Part shown: in pieces, positions 10,577 to 52,290 of the stretch
How positions within the stretch are numbered: position 1 is the stretch's first letter
Layout: each line of letters opens with the position of its first letter
Origin: Oryzias latipes
Lineage: Eukaryota; Chordata; Actinopteri; Beloniformes; Adrianichthyidae
Length of the DNA stretch: 64,000 nt
Reading direction: 5' to 3'
NCBI RefSeq assembly: GCF_002234675.1
Contig: NC_019859.2
Coordinates: 3,565,240-3,629,239, forward strand
Program-made: the position numbers and the translations under genes
Notes under the pieces: model-generated
What the model was told of the DNA's origin: nothing
The model's input: the letters and a program-made list of their open reading frames with translations, nothing else
The model's database searches: none

Positions 10577-35097
<24,521 letters not shown>

Positions 35098-38492: not shown

Positions 38493-38972
38493 ATGCATAA
38501 AAAACCTAAAACTGGAAAAGAAACAACTGAAAATTCTAAGCAACCCAAGTTAACGGAGTTTCGTCTTCGAGGGGAAGCGCAGAAGGCTAACGCTGCCACT
38601 GTCCAAATGGCGGAGACGCGCGAGGAGGAAAGCAGCAAGGTGGATAAAATACTGTCTGTTGTGACCTCCATGAAGACAGACTTTTCTACAAGATTTGACA
38701 AACTTTTATTGGCAGTCGAAGACATAAAACAGGAACTGAATGATTGCGCTGAACGAGTGACACAAACGGAGGTGCGCATTTCCAACACGGAGGACGACAT
38801 CAGCGTTTTGCAGGCCAAGGTGAGCGCACTGGAAGCAAAAGGAAAAGTTCTGGAGGACAAAGTCTTAGATTTGGAATCAAGATCAAGGCGGAACAATTTA
38901 AGACTTGTCAATTTGCCAGAAGGAGCTGAACAGGACCCGTGCCTGTTCTTGGAAAAGTGGCTTCCGCAGAGG
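38493..38972 (+). pseudogene. L1 ORF1, 5' part (coiled coil and start of RRM-like domain)
   Basis: ORF1 proteins are trimeric RNA-binding chaperones of L1. This part begins MHKKPKTGKE, has a heptad-like coiled coil (about residues 50-130, ISNTEDDISVLQAKVSALEA) and the conserved SRRNNLRLVNLPEG motif at the start of the RRM. It breaks off at FLEKWLPQ where the large insertion begins. The remainder is at 47637-48016. Confidence 0.85.
38961..38972. repeat. 12-bp duplication flanking the large insertion, left
   Basis: CTTCCGCAGAGG, repeated at 47637-47648. The true duplication could be 9-12 bp, as border bases may match by chance. Confidence 0.85.
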
Positions 38973-39329
38973 ATGGGGCCAGAGTAGTGCAACAGTCCAC
39001 GTTCAACGTAGACGATCTCCGCTCCCATTGGTCGAGTCTGCGTCCAACATGGACAATTCTCGACGCTCATTGTTCCAGACTTGACGCCCATGGATGTGAA
39101 CGAGCAATCAGAGGCGCGTTGTGCCCAACCTAGAGAAGCAATCAGATCGCGAGCATTGACACGCTGCACGCGGACCAGGTGAGCCACTTTCCCAGCAATA
39201 CCTGCTTCATCAAAAATGGCCTTTGATTTAGTTAGGACAAGTTTTTTTCTTTATTCAAGCATTTACTATCCCTAATTACGTGTTTTCATTGTTGTCTGAG
39301 CTGCCATTCGCACGCACAGTTTACATTGT
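38973..39329. other. Left end of the large insertion
   Basis: Unique sequence with several CGATCTCCGC/CAATCAGAGGCGCG-type short motifs. It may hold the promoter and terminal binding sites. No frame of note. Confidence 0.4.
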
Positions 39330-39860
39330 TTTGCAAAAAAGGAATGATCGCTTCCACCTAGCAGTCCCTGTACTACTAGCATTTTTCCGACATTTTGAAA
39401 GGTGCTTTGTTTTATTCTTCTTCATATTAAATGTTGTCATTGTTCAAATCGCTCCGATCGCTAAGATTTGACGTTTTTCCTGGTCTGCAAACAGGTCCGA
39501 GCGAGCTAGCTAGCTAGCGATCTTTTCAAATTAGCGTTCGTTGTACTAACGTCCCTTTTACGGACGATTTTGAGAATAGTGCTTTGTTTTTCCTCTTCAA
39601 ATTAAACGTTTTGATCGTTCAAATCGCCCCGATCGCTGAGATTTGACGGTTTTCCTGGTCTGCCAACAGGTCCTCCTAGCTAGCTAGCTAGCGAACTTTT
39701 CAAATTAGCGTTCGTTGTAAAAGCATGCCTTTTACGGACGATTTTGCGAATAGCACTTTGTTTTTCCTCTTCAGATTAAACGTTTAACTGGTCAAACTGC
39801 TCCGATCGCTGAGATTTGACCTTTATTCTGGTCTGTAAACAGGTCCTAGCTAGCTAGCTA
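39330..39860. repeat. Subterminal tandem repeat, about 173-bp period, three to four copies
   Basis: Each unit carries GATCGCT(A/G)AGATTTGAC, TCTGGTCTG.AAACAGGTCC, a palindromic run CTAGCTAGCTAGCGA and TTTACGGACGATTTTG. The GCTAGC cores lie near 39506, 39682 and 39848. The first copy is degenerate. Confidence 0.8.
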
Positions 39861-40027
39861 GCGATTTTTTCGAATTAGCATTCGTTTTTAGTAGCATACA
39901 TTTTAGGGAGTAAATAAACACAAACATCTTTTTTTCCTAACTAGACAACGTCATTGTGGGTTTTAGCTTTTTAAGTGAACAAGTCTCTCTGCAACGTTGG
40001 ATTTTTCTAACAGTCAATTTTTAAAAC

Positions 40028-40445
40028 TATGTTGAGTGATGCATGCACATGCGTGTGCATGTGCACATGCATCATTGTATCTGCACGTCATTGTATGTGC
40101 ATGTACGTACATGCATGCACATGCACATACAATGACGTGCAGATATACGTACATGCATGCCCATGCACATACAATGACGTGCAGATGTACGTACATGCAT
40201 GCACATACAATGACGTGCACATGCACGTACATGCATGCCCATGCACATACAATGACGTGCACATGCACGTACATGCATGCACATGCACGTACATGCATGC
40301 ACATGCACGTACATGCATGCACATACAATGACGTGCACATACAATGATGCACGTCATCGTATGCATCATGACATGCACATACAATGATGCATGTGGACGT
40401 GCATGCATGCACGTGCACATGCGTGTACGTCATTGTATATTCATG
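40028..40445. repeat. Self-complementary alternating purine-pyrimidine satellite
   Basis: Built from ACATGCACGTACATGCATGC and ACATACAATGACGTGC units. Most of it alternates purine and pyrimidine and is its own reverse complement, which explains why several frames on both strands are open. Expected to form cruciform or Z-DNA. Confidence 0.85.
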
Positions 40446-40610
40446 TGCATGCTTTTAAAGGCCTAGATGAGGATTTAAAAAAGAATACTAACATTGAATA
40501 TACAATATAGATTTTGCCAAGATATTTGAATTAAACACACTTTGAAGTCTTGCCAGCACTCTGTGTAACCACCTATTACTCTTCTATGACACAGACTATC
40601 ACAAGCAAAG

Positions 40611-43600
40611 ATGGCAACTTTCATCCGGGTCACAAACCCAAACGCCCCAGCGCATCGCCAGCAGGCCATTATTGTGGCTTCAAAAGAGGCCCGCTTGTAT
40701 CGGGAGAACAAAAAAATCTTCCCTCAACCTCCACCAGAGCTGCTCCATCAGTTCACCGCCCTAGGCCATGCAGAAAAACTGCTGCGGGCTGAAGGGATCT
40801 CTTCACCATCCCATCAGCAGTGTCTGGGAAGGCTGGTGTTGCCTTTTGGGCAGTACAAGAACGCCCCTTTCCACTGGCTTGTGGCCAATGATGTTGGATA
40901 CCTGAAATTGTAAGTATTTAACATAAAAATGACCTTTTATGTACTACACAACCTAACGCATGCAATGCTAAATATGAATGACACAAATATGTCTGCATTA
41001 AACTAAACTGATCAAAATATCCACCTGCAGCCTAGTTGACAAACACAGAGCGGAGGTGATTAACCCGGCTCGAAAAGGTGAAATTGGGAACCAGTGGATA
41101 AAAGACTGCCTGACGGAATACGCAGAGAGCTTCCCTCAAGTCTCCATTCTCCTCGAGGCCAACATAGATCGGTGCATCTATGGCCAGAAAGGGTTTGAAG
41201 ACCATACCTTTCAGGAGATGTGGGAGCTCCACCGGCAGTATGCAGCCCAAAAAGACAGGCCAGAGACATTTAGCATGAAGGAGAGGGAGATGATTCAAAA
41301 AGCAAACAGCTCGGTGAGGAGATGGTTGAACACACCGCTGACCCACATCACCAGCGTGCAGATGAAGAGGTTCCGAAAATACATATCAGAAAAGGAACAA
41401 GTAAGTGTTGTGGCCATAAACACCCCAAAAGCAAAGAGCGTGTTTGATTTGCACATTGATAATGTTTCATGACTGAACTTTACAGAATTTAATGAATTAA
41501 AACGTTTTCTTTCCTACTGCAGCAACAGCTGAAAATGGGCAATCCATCTTCAATGTCTGCTGCTGCTGATGATGCTGAGCTGATGGCTGCATGTCAGGCT
41601 GTGGAAGGTAAGAGACTAACAGAGTTAATTAAAAATACGTACATGTCTTTCTTAATCCCAAAATTTTTACTTTCTTAGATTTAGTGACGTCTCAGGAGTC
41701 CGCTAGTGCAAGCCAAGGCAGTAGTCGGCTTACTGAGATTGTTTCTAAAGAATCCCAGCCTACAAAAAAGAAGTCAGCCAGCCGGGTCAAGTCATCCTCA
41801 TTTTCCCCTCGGAAAGAGATGACTGCCTCAACCGCATCTTCCTCCCAGCCTCAGATATCCTCATCTGCCCCCCTTCATCCAGAGAGGACCTCCCCATCTG
41901 CATCCTCCCAGCCTCAGATATCCTCATCTGCCCCCCTTCATCCAGAGAGGACCTCACCATCTGCATCCTCCCAGCCTCAGATATCCTTATCTGCCCCCCT
42001 TCATCCAGAGAGGACCTCCCCATCTGCATCCTCCCAGCCTAAAATCAGTAAGAGGCCCGTTCTGTCTGGAACCATTGCACAGCACTCTGCATCTGTTCTT
42101 CAGACCAGTGCGTTGGCCTCCACATCCCAGAGTCGCGTCACTCCTGTGGAACTGCCTCAGAGTGACTCACCTGTAAGTTAGTAAATATGACTACTTTAAA
42201 TCTCTTACATTTAATTAAAACTCATCACATGTTCTGTATATAATTTGCAATGCAGGTGGAATTAGAGGGTTGGGTGCGTCTGTGGGAAGACCCCAATGGC
42301 ATCCCGCCTGCTGACGTCAATTGGCTGAAGGAGGACACAGAGAGAGGACTCTTCACAGCTGTTCAAACATATAAAGATGTTTCTGGCCATCTCAAGAGGA
42401 GGCGAGTGATGAAATCAGACCGGATGTGGTTTTACCCTCCGGAGCCTCCTGGTTTCATCAGCGCTGGTCTACCGGCTCCACACCTCTTTTTCCGGAGCCG
42501 CGTCTTTGTCTGGCGTCCTGTGGGAGTTTGGAGGTACTCTCTCAAGTGTCCTCGGGGTGACACCTGTGCAGGTGCAGGGCGAGATGTGCACCTCTACAAG
42601 TCTGGCTACCATCATCGGGTACGACTCACCTTTTTTTTCTTCTTTTTTTGTAAATTTCTTTTTTAAGCAGAAGTGTTCAGGACAGAAGATCCAATACTAA
42701 TGTCTTTTAGAGGCTTTCCATACAGCTTTAATTTTGTTCTGTTTAGTAGTTAAATATAGCCTCAGAGATGAACACATCACACGTTGCTCAGCTTTGCTTC
42801 ACTGTTTCTGATCTCTGCAGGTACGGCACATATGTGACGTGCCCAGCTGGTACACAATGCTGACTGAGGTTTTGTGTTGTGGACCATGCACGAAGGCAGC
42901 CAGAAACAAGGAGGGGGGCACAGTGGGGCGCTGGCTTGCATGGGATCGTGTCATTCTGTCTCAGCTCAGTGAGGCCCATCAAGCCATGTTCCCTGCAGTT
43001 CTCACCTGCAAGTGAGTGTTACCAGCAGCATGTGGATGAATTTTAAATGAATCATCTGATGACTCTCTCTTCTCCAAGGCGCGGCGTGGACAAGAATGTT
43101 GTTCGCCTTCTGCGGGACAGAACAGAGGGCAACACCATGGTGAAGGTGTGGCGGCAGGTCCAGGAAAACCACCATGAAGAATATCTTCATCGTAAGGACC
43201 TGTACACCACCCTTCTGATGGGCACCCTGGAGCCGGGTGGCATTGTTTCCGCTTTGGGGCACACCTTCCGCCCTCCCCCCCCCTCCAGAGAGTTACCCTC
43301 CGCGCGACTGCTGCGGCACGCCTTTCTGCTGGCAGAGGCCGACAATGTGCAGGACTACAGGAACCAGATCCTCTCCAACTTTGGCACTGTGCTGAAAATG
43401 GATTCCACCAAAAAAGTATTTCAAAGTTTCATTGTATTATCATTTCAGACATATTGCAGTCATTTTCACAACTTGAGATGAAATGCACCTCATATTGCTG
43501 GGGTTTGATGACAAATGATGGTATGTTTCAGGTGGTTAAGAAGCTGTCTGGAGAGGCTCATGGGTCAGCCGAGTGGTTCACCAGTGTTGGAAACGAGCAC

Positions 43601-46469
43601 TCCCAAATTGTGACCTTCGTGCTGACCTGCGAGGAATCCACAGACAAGCTTCGGCCCATGTGTCAAGGACTGATGGAGAGGTTTGAGCAGGCCAATCAAC
43701 CGGCTCCGAAGATCCTGTACGTTGATCGGGGGTGCTGCCGCGCTCAAGGCCCAACAGCGGTGGAGACTTTGTTTCAGCCTTGGGTTGACCGTGGGATGGT
43801 GGTTCGGCTGGACATCTTCCATTGGATCCACCGGTTCGACGCAGCCATCCGGACTGATAGCCACTCCAAATGCGCTGCATTCAAGTCTGCACTGGCTGGG
43901 GCAGTGCTGGCTTACAATAAAGGCGACCTGGATCTGCTGATAAAGGCTGTCAGGGCTAAGGGGGAAGCCTTGAAGTCTTTGTCGGATGACTGCGTCATCC
44001 AGCAGCACATCTCCAGGGAGCAGCTGAAGCACCACGTGCGGAGGGTGACTCTGGGACCACAGGAAACATTCCAGCTCATCCAGGGGGCGATCGAGGAGCT
44101 GAAAGGTCCAGCTGGTCTGGATGAAAGTGGAGTGAGCCTCTTCAAGACACCAGGTAAACGGAAAGCTTTCTTAGTGAACTATCCAATTACTATATAACTA
44201 AGTGTTGAATGTTTGTCAGCAGTTAAAAGATTCTCTGAGAACCAAACAACTAAACACACTGAGGATCATTAACTCAAAGGAAAGGCAGCTATTTGGACTG
44301 ACAACCTGAAAACAGAGCTTAAATTAAAACAAACTAAAACAAAAAGTTCACAATCATCCCTGTATGTGTCAAAAATGTGTTGACTGAACTGCCTTATTTC
44401 TGAATTCCTTTATTTATTTATAGAAGCCATCGATGAGGTGTGGGCGTGCCAGCAGCGGCATCTGGGCTGCATTCAGGATCCACCTGACATGTGCATGTAC
44501 AGGGTGGCTCGTGTTACCAACATCAACGGTGTGGATGTGCCTTTTTATAAATGCCTTCGAGGAAGCAACAGCTTGGAGGGTTTCCACAAAGTGCTGCCAC
44601 ACATGATTCCAGGTAGAACACTCTGGCGTGCACAGAAGCAGCACATGAAAGGTTATTAAAAATGAGGTTTCTGAAAAATCTTGTCACCACACAGGGCCAC
44701 ACTGTGCTGCACGTCCATATCAGGTTTACCTGATAAGCGGTATTGCTCGCTGGAACTCCGACAGGAGCGCAGATGCCGTGTTTGGAGGCAGAGGGCGGAG
44801 ACACCGGACGTACTCTGCTCCGCTGATTGACAGGCTCAACAGACGCTGTCAGCAGCTGTTTGGAGAGACTGTGGAAGAAAACTTCCAAACTCCCGCTGAT
44901 GTGGCCTCAAAGGAGCTCCTGGGTTTGGAGTACCTCTTCAGCCAGAGCACAGGGGAATCTGGACCTTTTTCCCTTCAGGACATCATGTCAGATGGACCTG
45001 GTCCAGAAGAGGAGGTGGTTCCACCTGAGCAGCTGGATCCAGAAGTGGAAGATGAGGCCTACCACAGCGACAGCGAGGAGCAGAGTGATGTTCTCCACGC
45101 CACCCCAGCCCACATCAACATCACCAGCCACGACACCTCCACTCCTCACCCGCCAGCCTTTGTGAGTAGCCTCTTTTTAAATATTTCAAACGGCACAGAC
45201 AGTCTCCTGTGTGCAAGTCTTTTTATTCTCTGAAACCTTTTTAACTTTTGTTCTTTAAAACAGGAGGATGTCTGTAGTCCGAATCCTCTTCCTGGATTCC
45301 AGAGGCTGGAGAGATTCTGCTCTCTGCTCGTGGAGATTGGCGTGAGGGAGAACAAGCTGTCCCTCACCACAGAGCAGAGGAGCCAGGTTGTGGAAGCCTG
45401 GAACGCCGTGGAGGAACATGATAAGCAGCCGCAGAAGTTTCACCAGCTGTACAGGACACACTGGGGCAACACCTTGTACTGCAGGACCAAAAGGGATGAT
45501 CTTGTTGAAGCTGCCGTTATCCAGAAGGTGAAAATGGCTAAACGGTACGCTCCAGCTCAGCAAGACATCACCGCCCAAAACAACAGGCTGATGTACACGC
45601 TGGTGAAACTGTTGTGGCTGCGGACTCCTCACGGCTCTCAAAGCAGCCCGGAGAAGACCAACATTCTTAAAGCGTATGAACGCATCCAGCATTGTCTTCT
45701 GGTGGAGGACCCAATCCTGTCCAGGGCGGGGATCCCTCTACCAAAGATAAACAGCAAGACGGTGAGAGACTTTATTCGCTTTCAGGAGAGGCTGCTGAAC
45801 CTCCGTGCCACCAAGCAGCCGTCCACCATCACAAAGACCACCTCCATCTCCTCCTCGGAGCTACCTCCAGCACCACATCAGCCAGCTGTGCTGCCCCCAC
45901 AAGACTACCCTGTGCTTACATATGTACCAATACCAAGCACTGCTGGAACAAAAAAGCTGAAAAAGAGAACAGACATCCCTCTGCCCTCTTCCACCTCCTT
46001 CCCAAAACCACCAAGCAGAACTCTGATTAAACCTGTCATCCATAGCCAAACGCAGCCTGCAGCTGCTTCCTCATCCATCCAGGGCGTCTATTTCGTTCCC
46101 ATACGACCTGCCCCTGACAACACCAGCACTACTTCCAGCATCAGCACCGCTTCCAGCATCAGCACCGCTTCCAGCATCAGCGCCGCCTCCATGCAAAGCA
46201 CACACACCAGCATCAGCACACCCTCCTGGGCAAAAGCTACCATCTATAAAAGGAAGCTCCAAGGACAAAGCTCAGGAGGGGACAGTAAAGTGTCAAGAGT
46301 GCACAATCTCCCCGTTTGTAGTCTCTGTGGCCAAGCTCTCCAGGGACACAAAAAATACAAAAAGAAAACTTTTTGCCCAGTGACCAAGATGTCAACTTCA
46401 AAGGGTCTTCAAAACAGAGTTTTTGAGAGCTTTGAACATTTTAGCTCTGTTGTCGATGACATTTGTTGA
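40611..46469 (+). CDS. Transposon-encoded protein with RNase H-like D/D/E residues, 1540 aa
   Basis: Exons: 40611-40909, 41031-41400, 41523-41607, 41679-42172, 42256-42618, 42821-43011, 43079-43415, 43532-44153, 44424-44612, 44695-45161, 45264-46469. All borders are AG/GT and the phases sum to exactly 1541 codons, so the model is strong. Regions: a small N-terminal module (LPFGQYKNAPFHWL...NDVGYLKF, about 80-103) resembling the ExoX C-terminal/DUF3820 fold; a Ser/Pro/Gln linker with three about 21-residue repeats; a Cys-rich module (about 430-610; CPRGDTC, CCGPC) possibly DUF6729-like; a putative transposase core with Asp709 (DSTKK), Asp778 (LYVDRGCC) and Glu972 (SNSLEGFHK); an acidic stretch (about 1100); and a C-terminal zinc knuckle-like CSLCGQALQGHKKYKKKTFC. 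AATAAA follows at 46488-46493. Domain names are by eye; function is inferred from the insertion. Confidence 0.8.
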
Positions 46470-46543
46470 CAGATATGTTTGTGTTACAATAAAAAAGAAT
46501 TTGTGTTTTTACAGATTTGCATCATTCATTTTCTTCAGAAATC

Positions 46544-46706
46544 AGGTCACAAGGGCAGCAGTCTGAGCAAAGAAGGTCAGATTTTCCTCTTCAAAGGCCA
46601 CTTCCTCAGGGGGAATCCCAAGGCATTCCAGACAGTCACTGCAGTGTTTTCTGAGCCTTCCCTCATCACACGCAATCTTGATCTGTTCTTTGATTTGTAA
46701 GCACCT
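46544..46706 (-). other. Minus-strand open frame at the right end of the insertion (unconfirmed)
   Basis: The minus strand reads about 53 codons without a stop after an AG: CDEGRLRKHCSDCLECLGI, EENLTFFAQTAALVT, stop at 46542-46544. The Cys spacing and acidic composition look protein-like. It could be the last exon of a second, opposed gene of the element, or chance. Confidence 0.35.
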
Positions 46707-47636
46707 AACAGATCATATCATTAAAAAGGGAGACAGCAAATACTAAAAAGTAAATAAGACACAACAAAAACTTAGATTTACCTGAATGTTTATTCAAAAT
46801 AATCTCAAATACATTCTTAAGTGAAAATTAGAATTTCACTACAACATGTGTGGGAAAAAAAGTAAAGCTGGCTTAGTCTTTATTTTGTCAGCTTGTCATC
46901 TAATGGGAGTTCCTCCAGAGTAAGGAAGCAAATGCTGGTCAACTCCTTGACCACACTGTTGTCCATCTGGAGTGTTGTCTAACGGAGTATATCCAAATAC
47001 CTTCTTTGCAACTCCAATAAAAAGACCTCGTATGTTCAAGAGTTGAGTATAAGGAGCTCTGCAGTTCACTTTTCAGGTCAGATCACCTGGATCATTTGGC
47101 ACAGCTTCCAGCTTGGTTCTATGGACACATGACAGGAAATGTATCAGAGGAGATTTTCTATAATTCAAATCAAATTTAAGACATGACAAGAATTAACTTG
47201 AAACTACTGTCATTACTGTAAGGTTTTCAATAACTTGTTTACATAAACATGTGGATTTAGCAATTTGATCAACTGAACACTAGATGGCGCCAATTAGTGC
47301 CATACAGGCAACAGGACACTTTAGTGGAGGTTTTGCTTCATTCAAATAAACTTCAAGATATCAATAGATTTACTTCCAAATGAACCATCTTCATAAGTCA
47401 GCCGTCTCAAGAATTTAGGGGTACTTTTGGGTTGGACAATTTAATGGGAAGGTTAACATGGATTATTAATGTTTTCTGCATTTATTTACAATGACTGGGT
47501 AGCAGCGACCATTTTTCTCTGCAATTTCATCCATCTACCACAAGATGGCTCCACTGGGAGAAAACGTCAACACCTGTACGTCAAGGGTTGGCCAATCCTA
47601 ACACATCTCAATTGCACTTCTGTCCAGCGCATCGCC
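46707..47636. other. Right end of the large insertion
   Basis: No long frame. A 28-codon minus-strand frame (46880-46966, MDNSVVKELTS start, ends DDKLTK) has its stop overlapping an AATAAA, as in a compact 3' end. Otherwise unrecognised. Confidence 0.35.
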
Positions 47637-48016
47637 CTTCCGCAGAGGCGCTCGGCACCGAAATGCTTCAGACTCCGCTGACCATAGAAAGAGCGCACCG
47701 AATCGGACCGCGGAGAGACGGCAACGCTCCACCTCGCACTCTCATCATGAGATTCCTTAACTATAAGGATAAGCTGGCTGTTGTCTCTGCGGCGCGGGCC
47801 AAAAAGGATCTTCGCTACAAGGAGCAGCGGATCCGATTCTACCCGGACCTCGCGGCGGGAGTGCACCAGCTTCAGAAAAAGTTCGACTCGGTTCGAGAGG
47901 GTCTGCGCAGATTGGGGATAAAGCACGGAGTGCTTATAACGCGGCCCAACAGCCATCCAACTCAGTCCGCGACAATATGTTTAAAACTAAATATACAAGT
48001 GAATGTGTGCATTTGA
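47637..48016 (+). pseudogene. L1 ORF1, 3' part (RRM end and C-terminal domain)
   Basis: Continues ORF1 after the insertion: PLTIERAHRIG, PRTLIMRFLNYKDK, AARAKKDLRYKEQRIRFYPD and the C-terminal helix region, all hallmarks of the Transposase_22 (L1 ORF1p) family. The frame differs by one base from the upstream part, so ORF1 also carries an indel or lost bases at the junction. Confidence 0.85.
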
Positions 48017-48129
48017 TGTAATTTCAACATTTTTAAAGTACAATAAGTCTGTGGATTATTTTTAATAACATTGTTATTCTGTTTCTAATAAATGATGAGT
48101 ATTTCTCGTGGTAGTTTTGCTGATGGTCT

Positions 48130-48675
48130 AGTCTGGTTGATCCGTGGTGAGTTTCTGCTTCATGCAGGCGTTGAGACTTTAACGTGATCGTAGGTCTGAA
48201 TGTTCTGTAGATGTGAGAGACTGCTCACATGCAGACGGGGAGCCAAACACACACTCACACGCTGCAGTGAGTGACGGGCATTGGGTTTTACGTTTTTACA
48301 ATCCCTGCGCGATTCACCTGCTGCCTGTCCCCACAACACCTCAGCCCCACCCTCTGCTTTCTCCCTCACACATCCCATCCCCGCAACTGCGCGCTCTTTC
48401 TCAGAGACGGGAGCGCGCACTTTTAGGCACGGCAATTCACAGGTTACCAGTTGGTACAAACTCTGTGAAATTATAGATAATTGTAAACTTATAGCGCTGG
48501 CGCAGATTTTTCTCTCCAAGCACTGCTACTACTGCGCGCCTCTGGCATCGCATCGCGCCCGAGAAGGACTGGACTAATGATAAAAAAAACTATAATTAAA
48601 GATTTGTCTGCGAGCCACATGTGACCATCAAAAGAGCCATATATGGCTCGCGAGCCATAGGTTCCCGACCCCTGT
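48130..48675 (-). mobile_element. hAT-like non-autonomous element fragment inside the L1
   Basis: The right edge reads GGTTCCCGACCCCTG on plus, i.e. an inverted end CAGGGGTCGGGAACC typical of hAT elements, followed inward by TATGGCTCGCGAGCC and TGTGGCTCGC. The left end was not identified, so it may be truncated. It sits exactly where the start of L1 ORF2 is expected. Confidence 0.6.
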
Positions 48676-48676
48676 T

Positions 48677-51600
48677 CTAGAGGAAGACGAAAAAAGAATT
48701 AGAAGAGCAAGAGGAGTGATGACTCTTATTCATGAATCTGTACCATTCCATGTCAGTAATGTGATTAAAGACAAGAGGGGTAGATATTTAATAATACAAG
48801 GATCATTATTGTTGGAAACATTAAATTTGGTTAATATTTACGGTCCTAATTCTGATGATTTTAAGTTTTATGAAGACCTGTTCCTTACACTTTCAGCGCT
48901 GCCCGGGCAATTTATAATAGCTGGGGACTTTAACTGTACCTTAAATCCAAGCCAGGATAGATCCACAGGAACCAACCAAACTCATAACAACTGTAGACTG
49001 AGTATTCTGAGATCAATGAAAGAACTAAAACTGCTAGATATTTGGAGGGAATTAAATCAGCAAACCAAGGCCTATTCATGCTATTCTGCAACATTTCAAA
49101 CCTACTCACGTATAGATTATTTCCTAATTTCTTCTGAATTGATGTCCAAAATCCAAAAATGTACATATGACAATATTGTAATTTCGGACCATGCTCCATG
49201 TTGCCTAGTATACAGGGATGAAAAAATATCCAGCGACCCTCCTAGATGGCGATTCCAACACAAATGGCTGCAGGACGGAGAGTTTGTTAAATACATAGGA
49301 AAACAAATAGATGACTTTTTCTACTTCAACACAGATCAAACTTCAGCCTGCATTAGATGGGATGCCTTTAAGGCATTTCTTAGAGGAAAAATAATTAGTT
49401 ACACAAGCTATAAAAATAAGAAAGACAAACAAAATTTTGCACAACTAGAGAACAAAATAAAACACACACAACAAAAAATTTATGAAAATGGGGATCTGGA
49501 AGCAAAAAAAGAGTTATTACTCCTAAGAGCAGAATATGACAAACAGTCCAGTAACAGGGCTGCATCAAGCCTTTTAAGGTTAAAACAAACATTTTATGAA
49601 CAAGGTGACAAGGCTGGAAAATTATTGGCATGGCAAATAAAACAACTGGAAACTAAAACCTCTATCACATGTATCACAAAAAATGAACAAAACTTAGTCA
49701 ATCCAAAAGATATCAACGACGCCTTTAGAGAGTATTACCAGAAACTGTATGACGCTCAAGGGAACTGTAATCCTACTGACATTAATAGTTTCCTAAATAG
49801 GCTGAATATTCCAGTTATCTCAAATGAGAATAAGATCAATTTGAATTTAAAGTTTAATAACATAAAAGTCGCACAAACTATTGAAAACATGAAATCAGGA
49901 AAAAGTCCAGGTCCAGATGGTATTCCGATTGAAATATATAAAAAATTTAAGGATAAATTGCTAACACCCCTACTGGAAATGTTTACTGAGGCATTTGAAA
50001 AAGAATGTCTTCCACTCTCCATGAATCAAGCCCTTATCACATTACTGCCAAAACCAGGTAAACCACCTAACAAATGCGAGAATATGAGGCCTATTAGTTT
50101 ACTGAATTCTGATCTTAAAATTATTTGCAAATTGTTAGCAAGGCGTCTCCAAAACGTTCTGCCACATATAATAGAGATCAGAATGGCTTTGTTGCTGGAA
50201 GACTAGGATCTCATAATGTGAGAAGAGTTTTAAATATCATTCATCATAAAAAAGAAAACAGAGATACTGCTCTCCTGTCATTAGATGCAGAAAAAGCATT
50301 TGATAGGGTTGAGTGGCCCTATCTTTTCAGTATCTTGGAAAGATTTGGATGTGGATCCAACTTTATAAAATGGATCATGATATTGTATAAAGACCCGACA
50401 GCGGAAGTTTTAACAAATAGAAATTTCTCTAAGCCAATTAAAATTAAGAGAGGATGTCGGCAAGGATGTCCTCTCTCTCCTTTGCTTTTTACTTTAGCAA
50501 TAGAACCATTTGCAGCAGCGATTCGTGCACATACACAGATAACTGGAATCACAATAGGACCCACTGAACACAAAATTTCTTTGTTTGCAGAGGATGTCAT
50601 TTTATATTTGAGTAACCTTACTTCATCAATCCCAGCAGTGCTGGAAGTGATTCAAATATTTGGAAGTATTTCAGGATATAAAGTGAATAATGCAAAATCC
50701 TCAATTTTAATGCTAAATTCTATGGAAAGGCAAAACCCCACTTCCAAAACATCTCACTTTAAAGTAGTTGAACATTTTGAATACTTAGGAGTGGTAATTG
50801 TACCAAAGCTGGATCAAGTTGTCCAACGTAACTATGATTACTTAAAAGAAAAAATCAAAGATTCAATAGACAGATGGATGAAGCTGCCCATAACTATAAT
50901 GGGAAGAATAAATATCCTAAAAATGAACGTATTGCCAAAACTGCTATACTTGTTCCAAAATATCCCTCTGGCACCCCCTCTAGAATTATTTGCTTGGTTA
51001 AAGAAAATCACAGTAGCCTTTATATGGAACAACAGAAAACCTAAACTCCGTCTTACTTTACTATACTTACCATTTGATGGAGGGGGGCTAAAATGCCCTA
51101 ATTTTAAGCATTACTTCTGGGCTACACATCTGCGCTCCATTATGTTTTACTTCTCTAATGAGAATAATCCACATTGGGTGGAAATGGAGTCCCACAATTT
51201 AAAAATACCTTTACCGTCGTTCTTATACTCCGATAAAATAAGAAAGTTACAAAGACAAATCAAAAATCCTTTCTTGAAACACATGATAAAGGTCTGGTTT
51301 GAGGTCAAAAACTATTTAAAAGAAGTAAATTCTTTATCACAATTCAGCCCAATCTGGGGTCACCAGTGTTTTGTACCAGGAAGAATGGATACAACGTTTA
51401 AAACGTGGGCATCCAAAGGACTTAGAACAATTAGAGATTTGTACCCCTCACAGTCTGATACCTTTATGTCCTTTGAGGAGCTGCTAAAATCTATGTACGA
51501 CCTGGATAAAAAACACTACTTTAAATATCTTCAGTTAAGAAGCTTTGTGAATGCAAACCAAAAGAGTCTTAACAAAATTCCTTTTTCACAGCTGGAAACC

Positions 51601-52290
51601 CAGATGATGAAAAACAAATTAAGAAAAGGCATAATTTCGGACCTCTATAACTTATTGACATCTAATACATCAGAGAACTCAAATGGTAAATTAAAATCAT
51701 GGAATGATGACTTATCACTCAATATTAATGAAAATGATTGGACAAGGGCATGTTGTAAGATTCATTCTATGTCTATTAACAGTCGACTGAGAATACTACA
51801 ATTTAAATGGTTAATGCGTTTATATACGACACCAGTGCAACTAAATAAATATAATAAGAACATACCAGATGTTTGTGCAAAATGTGGATTTAAAGGCACA
51901 TTGAAGCATTGCATGTGGGAATGTCACCAAATACAAATCTTTTTGGAAGAAGTTAAAATTACAATAGAAAAAATAATCTCTAAACAACTTACATTGAGCC
52001 CTACCCTATTTCTTTTGACTATATATCCAGTGAAACATAATTTTAGTAATACAGAGAGTACATTTATTGATATCAGTTTCTTAACGGCTAAAAGGTGTAT
52101 TGCACAGGCTTGGAAAAACATGAGCAGACCTAGCATAAATCAGTGGCTAAAACAAATGTTGTATTGCCTTCCTTTGGAAAGAATAATGTATATCCATAAA
52201 AGCAAACAACACCTATTTGAGGAAATTTGGGGACCCTTTATTAATTATATTCAAAAATTAGAACTAATAGATGATTCAACAGATTTTTGA
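48677..52290 (+). pseudogene. L1 ORF2 (endonuclease-reverse transcriptase), truncated, frameshifted and mutated
   Basis: ORF2 nicks target DNA and reverse transcribes the RNA. The first part of the endonuclease is missing. Visible: NIYGPN, GDFN, SRIDYF and SDHAP of the AP-like endonuclease; a linker; then RT motifs [16 protein letters not shown] and RPISLLN. The frame shifts by one near 50165-50190 between LPHII and DQNGFVAGR. The second part has [28 protein letters not shown] and the catalytic box as FAED instead of FADD. A Cys-rich end follows (CAKCGF...HCMWECH). The copy cannot be autonomous. Confidence 0.92.

What the first reader, a model, noticed from the sequence alone, without database searches (positions are those of the whole stretch)
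38973..47636. Large undescribed-looking DNA transposon with an 11-exon gene, caught inside L1 ORF1
L1 ORF1 is interrupted at one point, and a 12-bp piece of L1 sequence stands on both sides. The 8.66 kb between them carries a gene whose 11 exons close in phase to 1540 codons with no stop. Such an intact spliced gene inside a dead L1 argues that it came in by transposition and was recently active. Its putative core (Asp709, Asp778, Glu972) has the D/D/E layout of RNase H-type transposases. A 9-12 bp duplication fits Mutator-like elements better than hAT (8) or piggyBac (4), but the protein does not look like a standard MULE transposase to me.
Basis: partly seen in the sequence, partly recalled or inferred. 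Interest (0 to 1): 0.88.

Follow-up and report, generated by a model that had tools for sequence, protein, structure and literature searches.

The report
U1-targeting Dada transposon inside L1
An 8.7-kb fish jumping gene of the known Dada type, whose only other copy found in the same genome sits in a U1 splicing-RNA gene as Dada-U1 elements do, lies here inside an L1 retrotransposon, likely after missing its usual target; the gene is predicted to encode its own DNA-cutting transposase.

Summary
The 11 exons join to 1540 codons without an inner stop, and an 8.67-kb unit interrupts L1 ORF1. The unit is not of an undescribed kind: it is a Dada DNA transposon of the Dada-U1 group (Kojima and Jurka 2013; Kojima 2022). 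In the window's own genome one other copy of both ends was found, 99.85% identical (13 of 8629 compared positions differ) with the same 1540-codon frame, inside a U1 snRNA gene with the 6-bp repeat GTTCGC, published for Dada-U1 as GCGAAC. This moves the left boundary to 38968: the "12-bp duplication" is a 7-bp flanking repeat, CTTCCGC, plus AGAGG, the element's own first 5 bp on the left and L1 on the right. AGTGCAA lies inverted 18 bp from each end, as in Dada-U1. The protein has D709/D778/DxxH/E972 on a predicted RNase H fold nearest to an IS256-type transposase. New is the landing site, L1 ORF1, and a GC in the flanking repeat that 0 of 15 empty L1 sites have.

The parts
38968..47636 (+). 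Dada-U1 type DNA transposon, 8669 bp
   Evidence: Ends shared with a 99.85% identical copy at G000:C13:2536113-2544742 in a U1 gene
38961..38967 (+). left flanking repeat CTTCCGC (CTTCC as in empty L1 sites, plus GC)
47637..47643 (+). right flanking repeat CTTCCGC
38986..38992 (+). left sub-terminal repeat AGTGCAA, 18 bp from the 5' end
47612..47618 (-). right sub-terminal repeat (TTGCACT on + strand), 18 bp from the 3' end; ATTGCAC at 47611-47617
40611..40909 (+). coding exon 1
   Evidence: kept in the second copy
41031..41400 (+). coding exon 2
41523..41607 (+). coding exon 3
41679..42172 (+). coding exon 4
42256..42618 (+). coding exon 5 (start of DUF6729, Cys514 and Cys520)
42821..43011 (+). 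coding exon 6 (Cys557, Cys560)
43079..43415 (+). coding exon 7 (first catalytic residue, Asp709)
43532..44153 (+). coding exon 8 (Asp778 and the Asp807-x-x-His810 motif)
44424..44612 (+). coding exon 9 (third catalytic residue, Glu972)
44695..45161 (+). coding exon 10
45264..46469 (+). coding exon 11 with stop; C-terminal CCHC zinc finger Cys1491-Cys1494-His1501-Cys1510
46488..46493 (+). AATAAA, possible polyadenylation signal
   Evidence: sequence
38493..38960 (+). 5' part of the interrupted L1 ORF1 (start codon chosen by eye)
47644..47935 (+). 3' part of the interrupted L1 ORF1 (stretch shared with other L1 copies)

Best explanation
This is an 8669-bp Dada-U1 type DNA transposon that likely landed in L1 ORF1 by mistaking a U1-like sequence there for its usual target, the U1 snRNA gene in which its sister copy sits. 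[quoted passage not shown] The transposase would recognise the AGTGCAA repeats 18 bp from both ends, cut the element out and join it to a target in which CGC followed by A(A/G)(A/G)GG marks the cut. Shown: gene, both copies, ends, U1 target of the sister copy, empty L1 sites. Inferred: enzyme activity, binding to the sub-terminal repeats, the target motif (from two sites here and the published one), and that the L1 insertion is off-target rather than a second regular target.
Against: No published Dada protein sequence could be compared directly; no source name shown in the lists says Dada. Only two copies, in one genome. In L1 the distal U1 motif GTGCAAT is absent at the matching distance (ATGCTTC). 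The L1 flanking repeat contains GC that 0 of 15 empty L1 sites have, so a plain 7-bp duplication of the usual L1 sequence does not explain it. With default Rfam cut-offs the left side of the U1 gene gave no match. An extended terminal inverted repeat is absent: a weak gapped match was reached by 7 of 500 shuffles for the first 30 bp, 9 at 40 and 27 at 60, and the ungapped first 30 bp by 222 of 10,000.
Confidence: 0.93

Rival explanations
1. A Mutator-like (MULE) element: the 9-12 bp duplication and the D/D/E layout would be those of MULEs.
For: The nearest solved fold is ISCth4 of the IS256 family, whose transposases resemble those of MULEs (passages of PMC7780238).
Against: The flanking repeat is 6 bp in the U1 copy and 7 bp here; the Pfam scan of the window protein gives DUF6729 and one sub-threshold hit, no MULE model; gene structure, sub-terminal repeats and U1 target are those of Dada.
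Confidence: 0.03
2. L1 ORF1 is a regular second target of this Dada family, not an accident: a young, conserved multicopy sequence would serve like an RNA gene.
For: L1 is multicopy here (15 other copies span the site) and young; the site resembles U1 around the cut (CCGCAGAGG against published U1 CGCAGGGG); Dada targets are chosen for copy number and conservation.
Against: One of two copies found; 0 of 15 other L1 copies spanning the point carries an insert there, and the usual L1 sequence lacks CGC before AGAGG. A Dada copy inside another transposon is reported as one of five copies of Dada-tV_OL.
Confidence: 0.08
3. A domesticated host gene rather than a mobile element, carried into L1 by a segmental duplication.
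For: An intact 11-exon gene; a domesticated Dada-U6 gene exists in carps and minnows.
Against: Both copies share exact ends with flanking repeats in unrelated sites (U1 and L1), and the catalytic residues are intact.
Confidence: 0.01

Closest known systems
Dada-U1 (Dada superfamily of DNA transposons; Kojima and Jurka 2013 PMC3706591, Kojima 2022 PMC8869645)
   Same: Size and 11 exons (as given for Dada-U6_DR), DDE plus DxxH, CCCC and CCHC zinc fingers, 6-7 bp flanking repeats, GTGCAA/TTGCAC sub-terminal repeats, U1 target of the sister copy with the published repeat.
   Different: The window copy sits in L1 ORF1, not in a small RNA gene, and its flanking repeat carries an extra GC relative to empty L1 sites.
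Pfam DUF6729 (PF20499)
   Same: Present in 35 of 35 family members scanned; it holds the cysteines that match the N-terminal CCCC finger of Dada.
   Different: Pfam gives it no function; the link to Dada is made here. No paper in the library holds the word DUF6729.
IS256 family transposase ISCth4
   Different: Bacterial and much shorter; 9-11% identity in the aligned parts.
Dada-tV_OL inserted in hAT-N16_OL (medaka)
   Same: A Dada copy inside another transposon instead of its RNA gene.
   Different: Other Dada lineage, other host element.

Membership tests
Dada superfamily | DDE triad with DxxH between second D and E | tested here: met
   D709 33/35, D778 35/35, D807 and H810 35/35, E972 34/35
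Dada superfamily | RNase H-type catalytic fold | tested here: met
Dada superfamily | N-terminal CCCC zinc finger | tested here: met
   C514, C520, C557, C560 in the window protein; C514, C557, C560 in 35/35, C520 in 9/35 of a variable column
Dada superfamily | C-terminal CCHC zinc finger | tested here: met
   C1491, C1494, H1501, C1510; pattern in 25 of 35 members, 10 without, some of them shorter models
Dada superfamily | 6-7 bp target site duplication | tested here: met
   6 bp in the U1 copy; 7-bp flanking repeat in L1, of which 5 bp are in the empty sites
Dada superfamily | insertion in a multicopy small RNA gene | tested here: met
   Sister copy in a U1 gene (at default cut-offs missed the left side); not true of the window copy
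Dada superfamily | sequence match to a published Dada transposase | not tested
Dada-U1 group | duplication GCGAAT/GCGAAC in U1 | tested here: met
   GTTCGC on both sides of the sister copy, complement of GCGAAC (published)
Dada-U1 group | sub-terminal GTGCAAT/ATTGCAC, also in U1 at the same distance | tested here: met
   ATTGCAC 19 bp from the 3' end, GTGCAAC (6 of 7) 19 bp from the 5' end, GTGCAAT 19 bp past the repeat in U1
Dada-U1 group | place in the Dada-U1 branch of the transposase tree | not tested
   A tree of 35 homologues was built but no row carries a published Dada name
   6 and 7 bp
Mutator/MULE | match to a MULE transposase profile | tested here: not met
   Window protein: only DUF6729 and a sub-threshold adenoviral hit; no MULE model among the 25 of 42 families shown for 35 members
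KDZ/Zisupton | 8-bp duplication (Zisupton, passages of PMC12730594) and KDZ transposase profile | tested here: not met
   6-7 bp; no KDZ profile for the window protein

The most novel reading that the evidence does not exclude
When Dada-U1 misses U1 it rebuilds part of its own target at the wrong site: the GC that follows CTTCC on both sides of the insert, absent from 15 of 15 empty L1 sites, was laid down during integration and turned an L1 sequence into a U1-like one (TTCC-GC-AGAGG against U1 TTCGC-AGGGG). This would be the L1 counterpart of the unexplained target replacement published for Dada-tA and Dada-tY.
Probability: 0.35. Interest if true: 0.5.

Novelty: new member of a known kind. 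Interest (0 to 1): 0.33.

Why it matters
Dada is a rare group of DNA transposons with strict target choice, of interest for placing genes at chosen sites. This pair of nearly identical copies, one on target in U1 and one in L1, suggests which part of the target is needed (CGC followed by A(A/G)(A/G)GG at the cut) and which can be missing (GTGCAAT 19 bp away). It also suggests that Pfam DUF6729, so far without function, is the zinc-binding part of Dada transposases in many animal phyla.

Tried and rejected

Not answered: the number of U1 genes (RF00003) in the own genome, and whether CTTCCGCAGAGGCGCTCGGC occurs in any other L1 copy; every such search came back busy. Counts of copies in the own genome are lower bounds, as the tool says.

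Full report
Observation. CTTCCGCAGAGG occurs at 38961-38972 and at 47637-47648. The L1 reading is right: the broken ORF1 is closest to an Oryzias javanicus L1 ORF1 (83%), and the own genome holds 19 matches to the right-hand L1 flank, the window's own included.

Identification. The first Dada paper (PMC3706591, parts 1-3 of 4 read) gave the match: Dada-U6_DR is 8963 bp with 11 exons and 1402 codons, catalytic residues 68 and 176 apart (69 and 194 here), CCCC and CCHC zinc fingers, DxxH; Dada has no terminal inverted repeats but sub-terminal ones in the U6 and U1 groups, and 6-7 bp duplications. Dada-U1 has GTGCAAT/ATTGCAC near its ends and the repeat GCGAAT or GCGAAC. The window protein has C514, C520, C557, C560 and C1491, C1494, H1501, C1510.

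Second copy. In the 734-Mb own genome the left end has one other match and the right end one other match, on contig 13, 8.6 kb apart; such counts are lower bounds. The copy (C13:2536113-2544742, 8630 bp) differs from the window copy at 13 of 8629 compared positions, plus a 40-bp and a 1-bp gap; its 11 exons also give 1540 codons, with 3 residue differences. It splits a U1 snRNA gene. On the right side Rfam RF00003 scores 70.3 bits, just above the gathering score (the match runs 56 bases into the element, whose end resembles U1). On the left side the default search gave nothing and the sensitive one 60.7 bits, E 4.9e-15, for model positions 71-166 (cut off by the end of the stretch given, with 17 element bases in it). 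The flanking repeat is GTTCGC, the complement of the published Dada-U1 repeat. The element therefore starts AGAGGATGGGG and ends CCAGCGCATCGCC, and AGTGCAA lies 18 bp from both ends; the U1 flank carries GTGCAAT 19 bp past the repeat. This fixes the label Dada-U1 by structure and target; a tree with published members was not possible.

The L1 site. Of 18 other L1 loci returned (L009-L026), 15 distinct copies span the insertion point (L009-L023; L026 is the L023 element again, L024 and L025 do not cover the junction). Thirteen read CTTCCAGAGG, one CTTCAAGAGG, one CTTACAGAGG; none has GC before AGAGG. The filled site has CTTCCGC on both sides. Either this L1 copy already had GC, which made it U1-like and so a target, or integration added GC, as in the replaced flanks that Kojima reports for Dada-tA and Dada-tY (PMC8869645, parts 1-3 of 5, passages, and the figure and table section). 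I cannot decide; against the second view, no simple joining step puts GC on the far side of the right-hand repeat. An empty allele would decide. The target strings compared are CGCAGGGG (published U1), CGCAAAGG (the U1 gene on contig 13) and CGCAGAGG (this L1).

Mechanism. Shown: structure, ends, two insertions, targets. Inferred: the transposase binds sub-terminal AGTGCAA, cuts and joins by the DDE site with H810 near the cut phosphate (as the histidine of this motif does in Hermes, passages of PMC7780238), and reads CGC-A(A/G)(A/G)GG in the target. The L1 landing is likely off-target.

Host. Kojima's Table 1 marks Dada-U1 in Adrianichthyidae (three species taken together), so this family may already be in Repbase; I could not check. 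The library holds 4 papers with the term Dada-U1: the two Dada papers, and two seen only as listings, one of which is about Pseudomonas. In the parts I read no L1 insertion is reported.

Tree. In a tree of 35 core sequences the window protein joins Sebastes, Esox, Pygocentrus, Brachyhypopomus, Brienomyrus, Phoxinus, Alosa and Danio aesculapii (9 rows, support 100/100), with a starfish next (99/97). The order inside is poorly resolved; horizontal transfer was not tested.

Noticed in passing
12711-17653: LTR retroelement on the minus strand: end repeats identical over 311 bp, a 1447-codon open frame (gag-pol-like by eye) and a likely 5-bp duplication GAAGG.
   Followed up: partly
40037-40455: Array of ATGCATGCAC/TACGTGCA palindromic repeats upstream of coding exon 1 of the element; the two copies differ here by a 40-bp gap.
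   Followed up: no
39392-39909: Three head-to-tail copies of a roughly 174-bp unit with GCTAGCTAGC in the 5' non-coding part of the element.
   Followed up: no
40647-40659 and 47624-47636: The last 13 bp of the element, CCAGCGCATCGCC, also occur exactly in coding exon 1 in the same orientation; chance or function unknown.
   Followed up: no
47936-48680: Likeness to most other L1 copies stops at about 47935 and the ORF2 frame starts only near 48.6 kb, so the L1 may carry another insert of about 0.7 kb.
   Followed up: no
50119-50206: L1 ORF2 is split into two overlapping frames (48596-50206 and 50119-52290), so a frameshift breaks it.
   Followed up: no
homologues: Relatives of this protein bear misleading names in fish genomes (surface protein bspA-like, Epithelial-stromal interaction 1) or only DUF6729.
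   Followed up: partly
L004 1188-1243 (3' end of the contig 13 copy): The U1 covariance model runs on into the last 56 bases of the element, so the element's 3' end itself resembles the U1 sequence next to its target.
   Followed up: no
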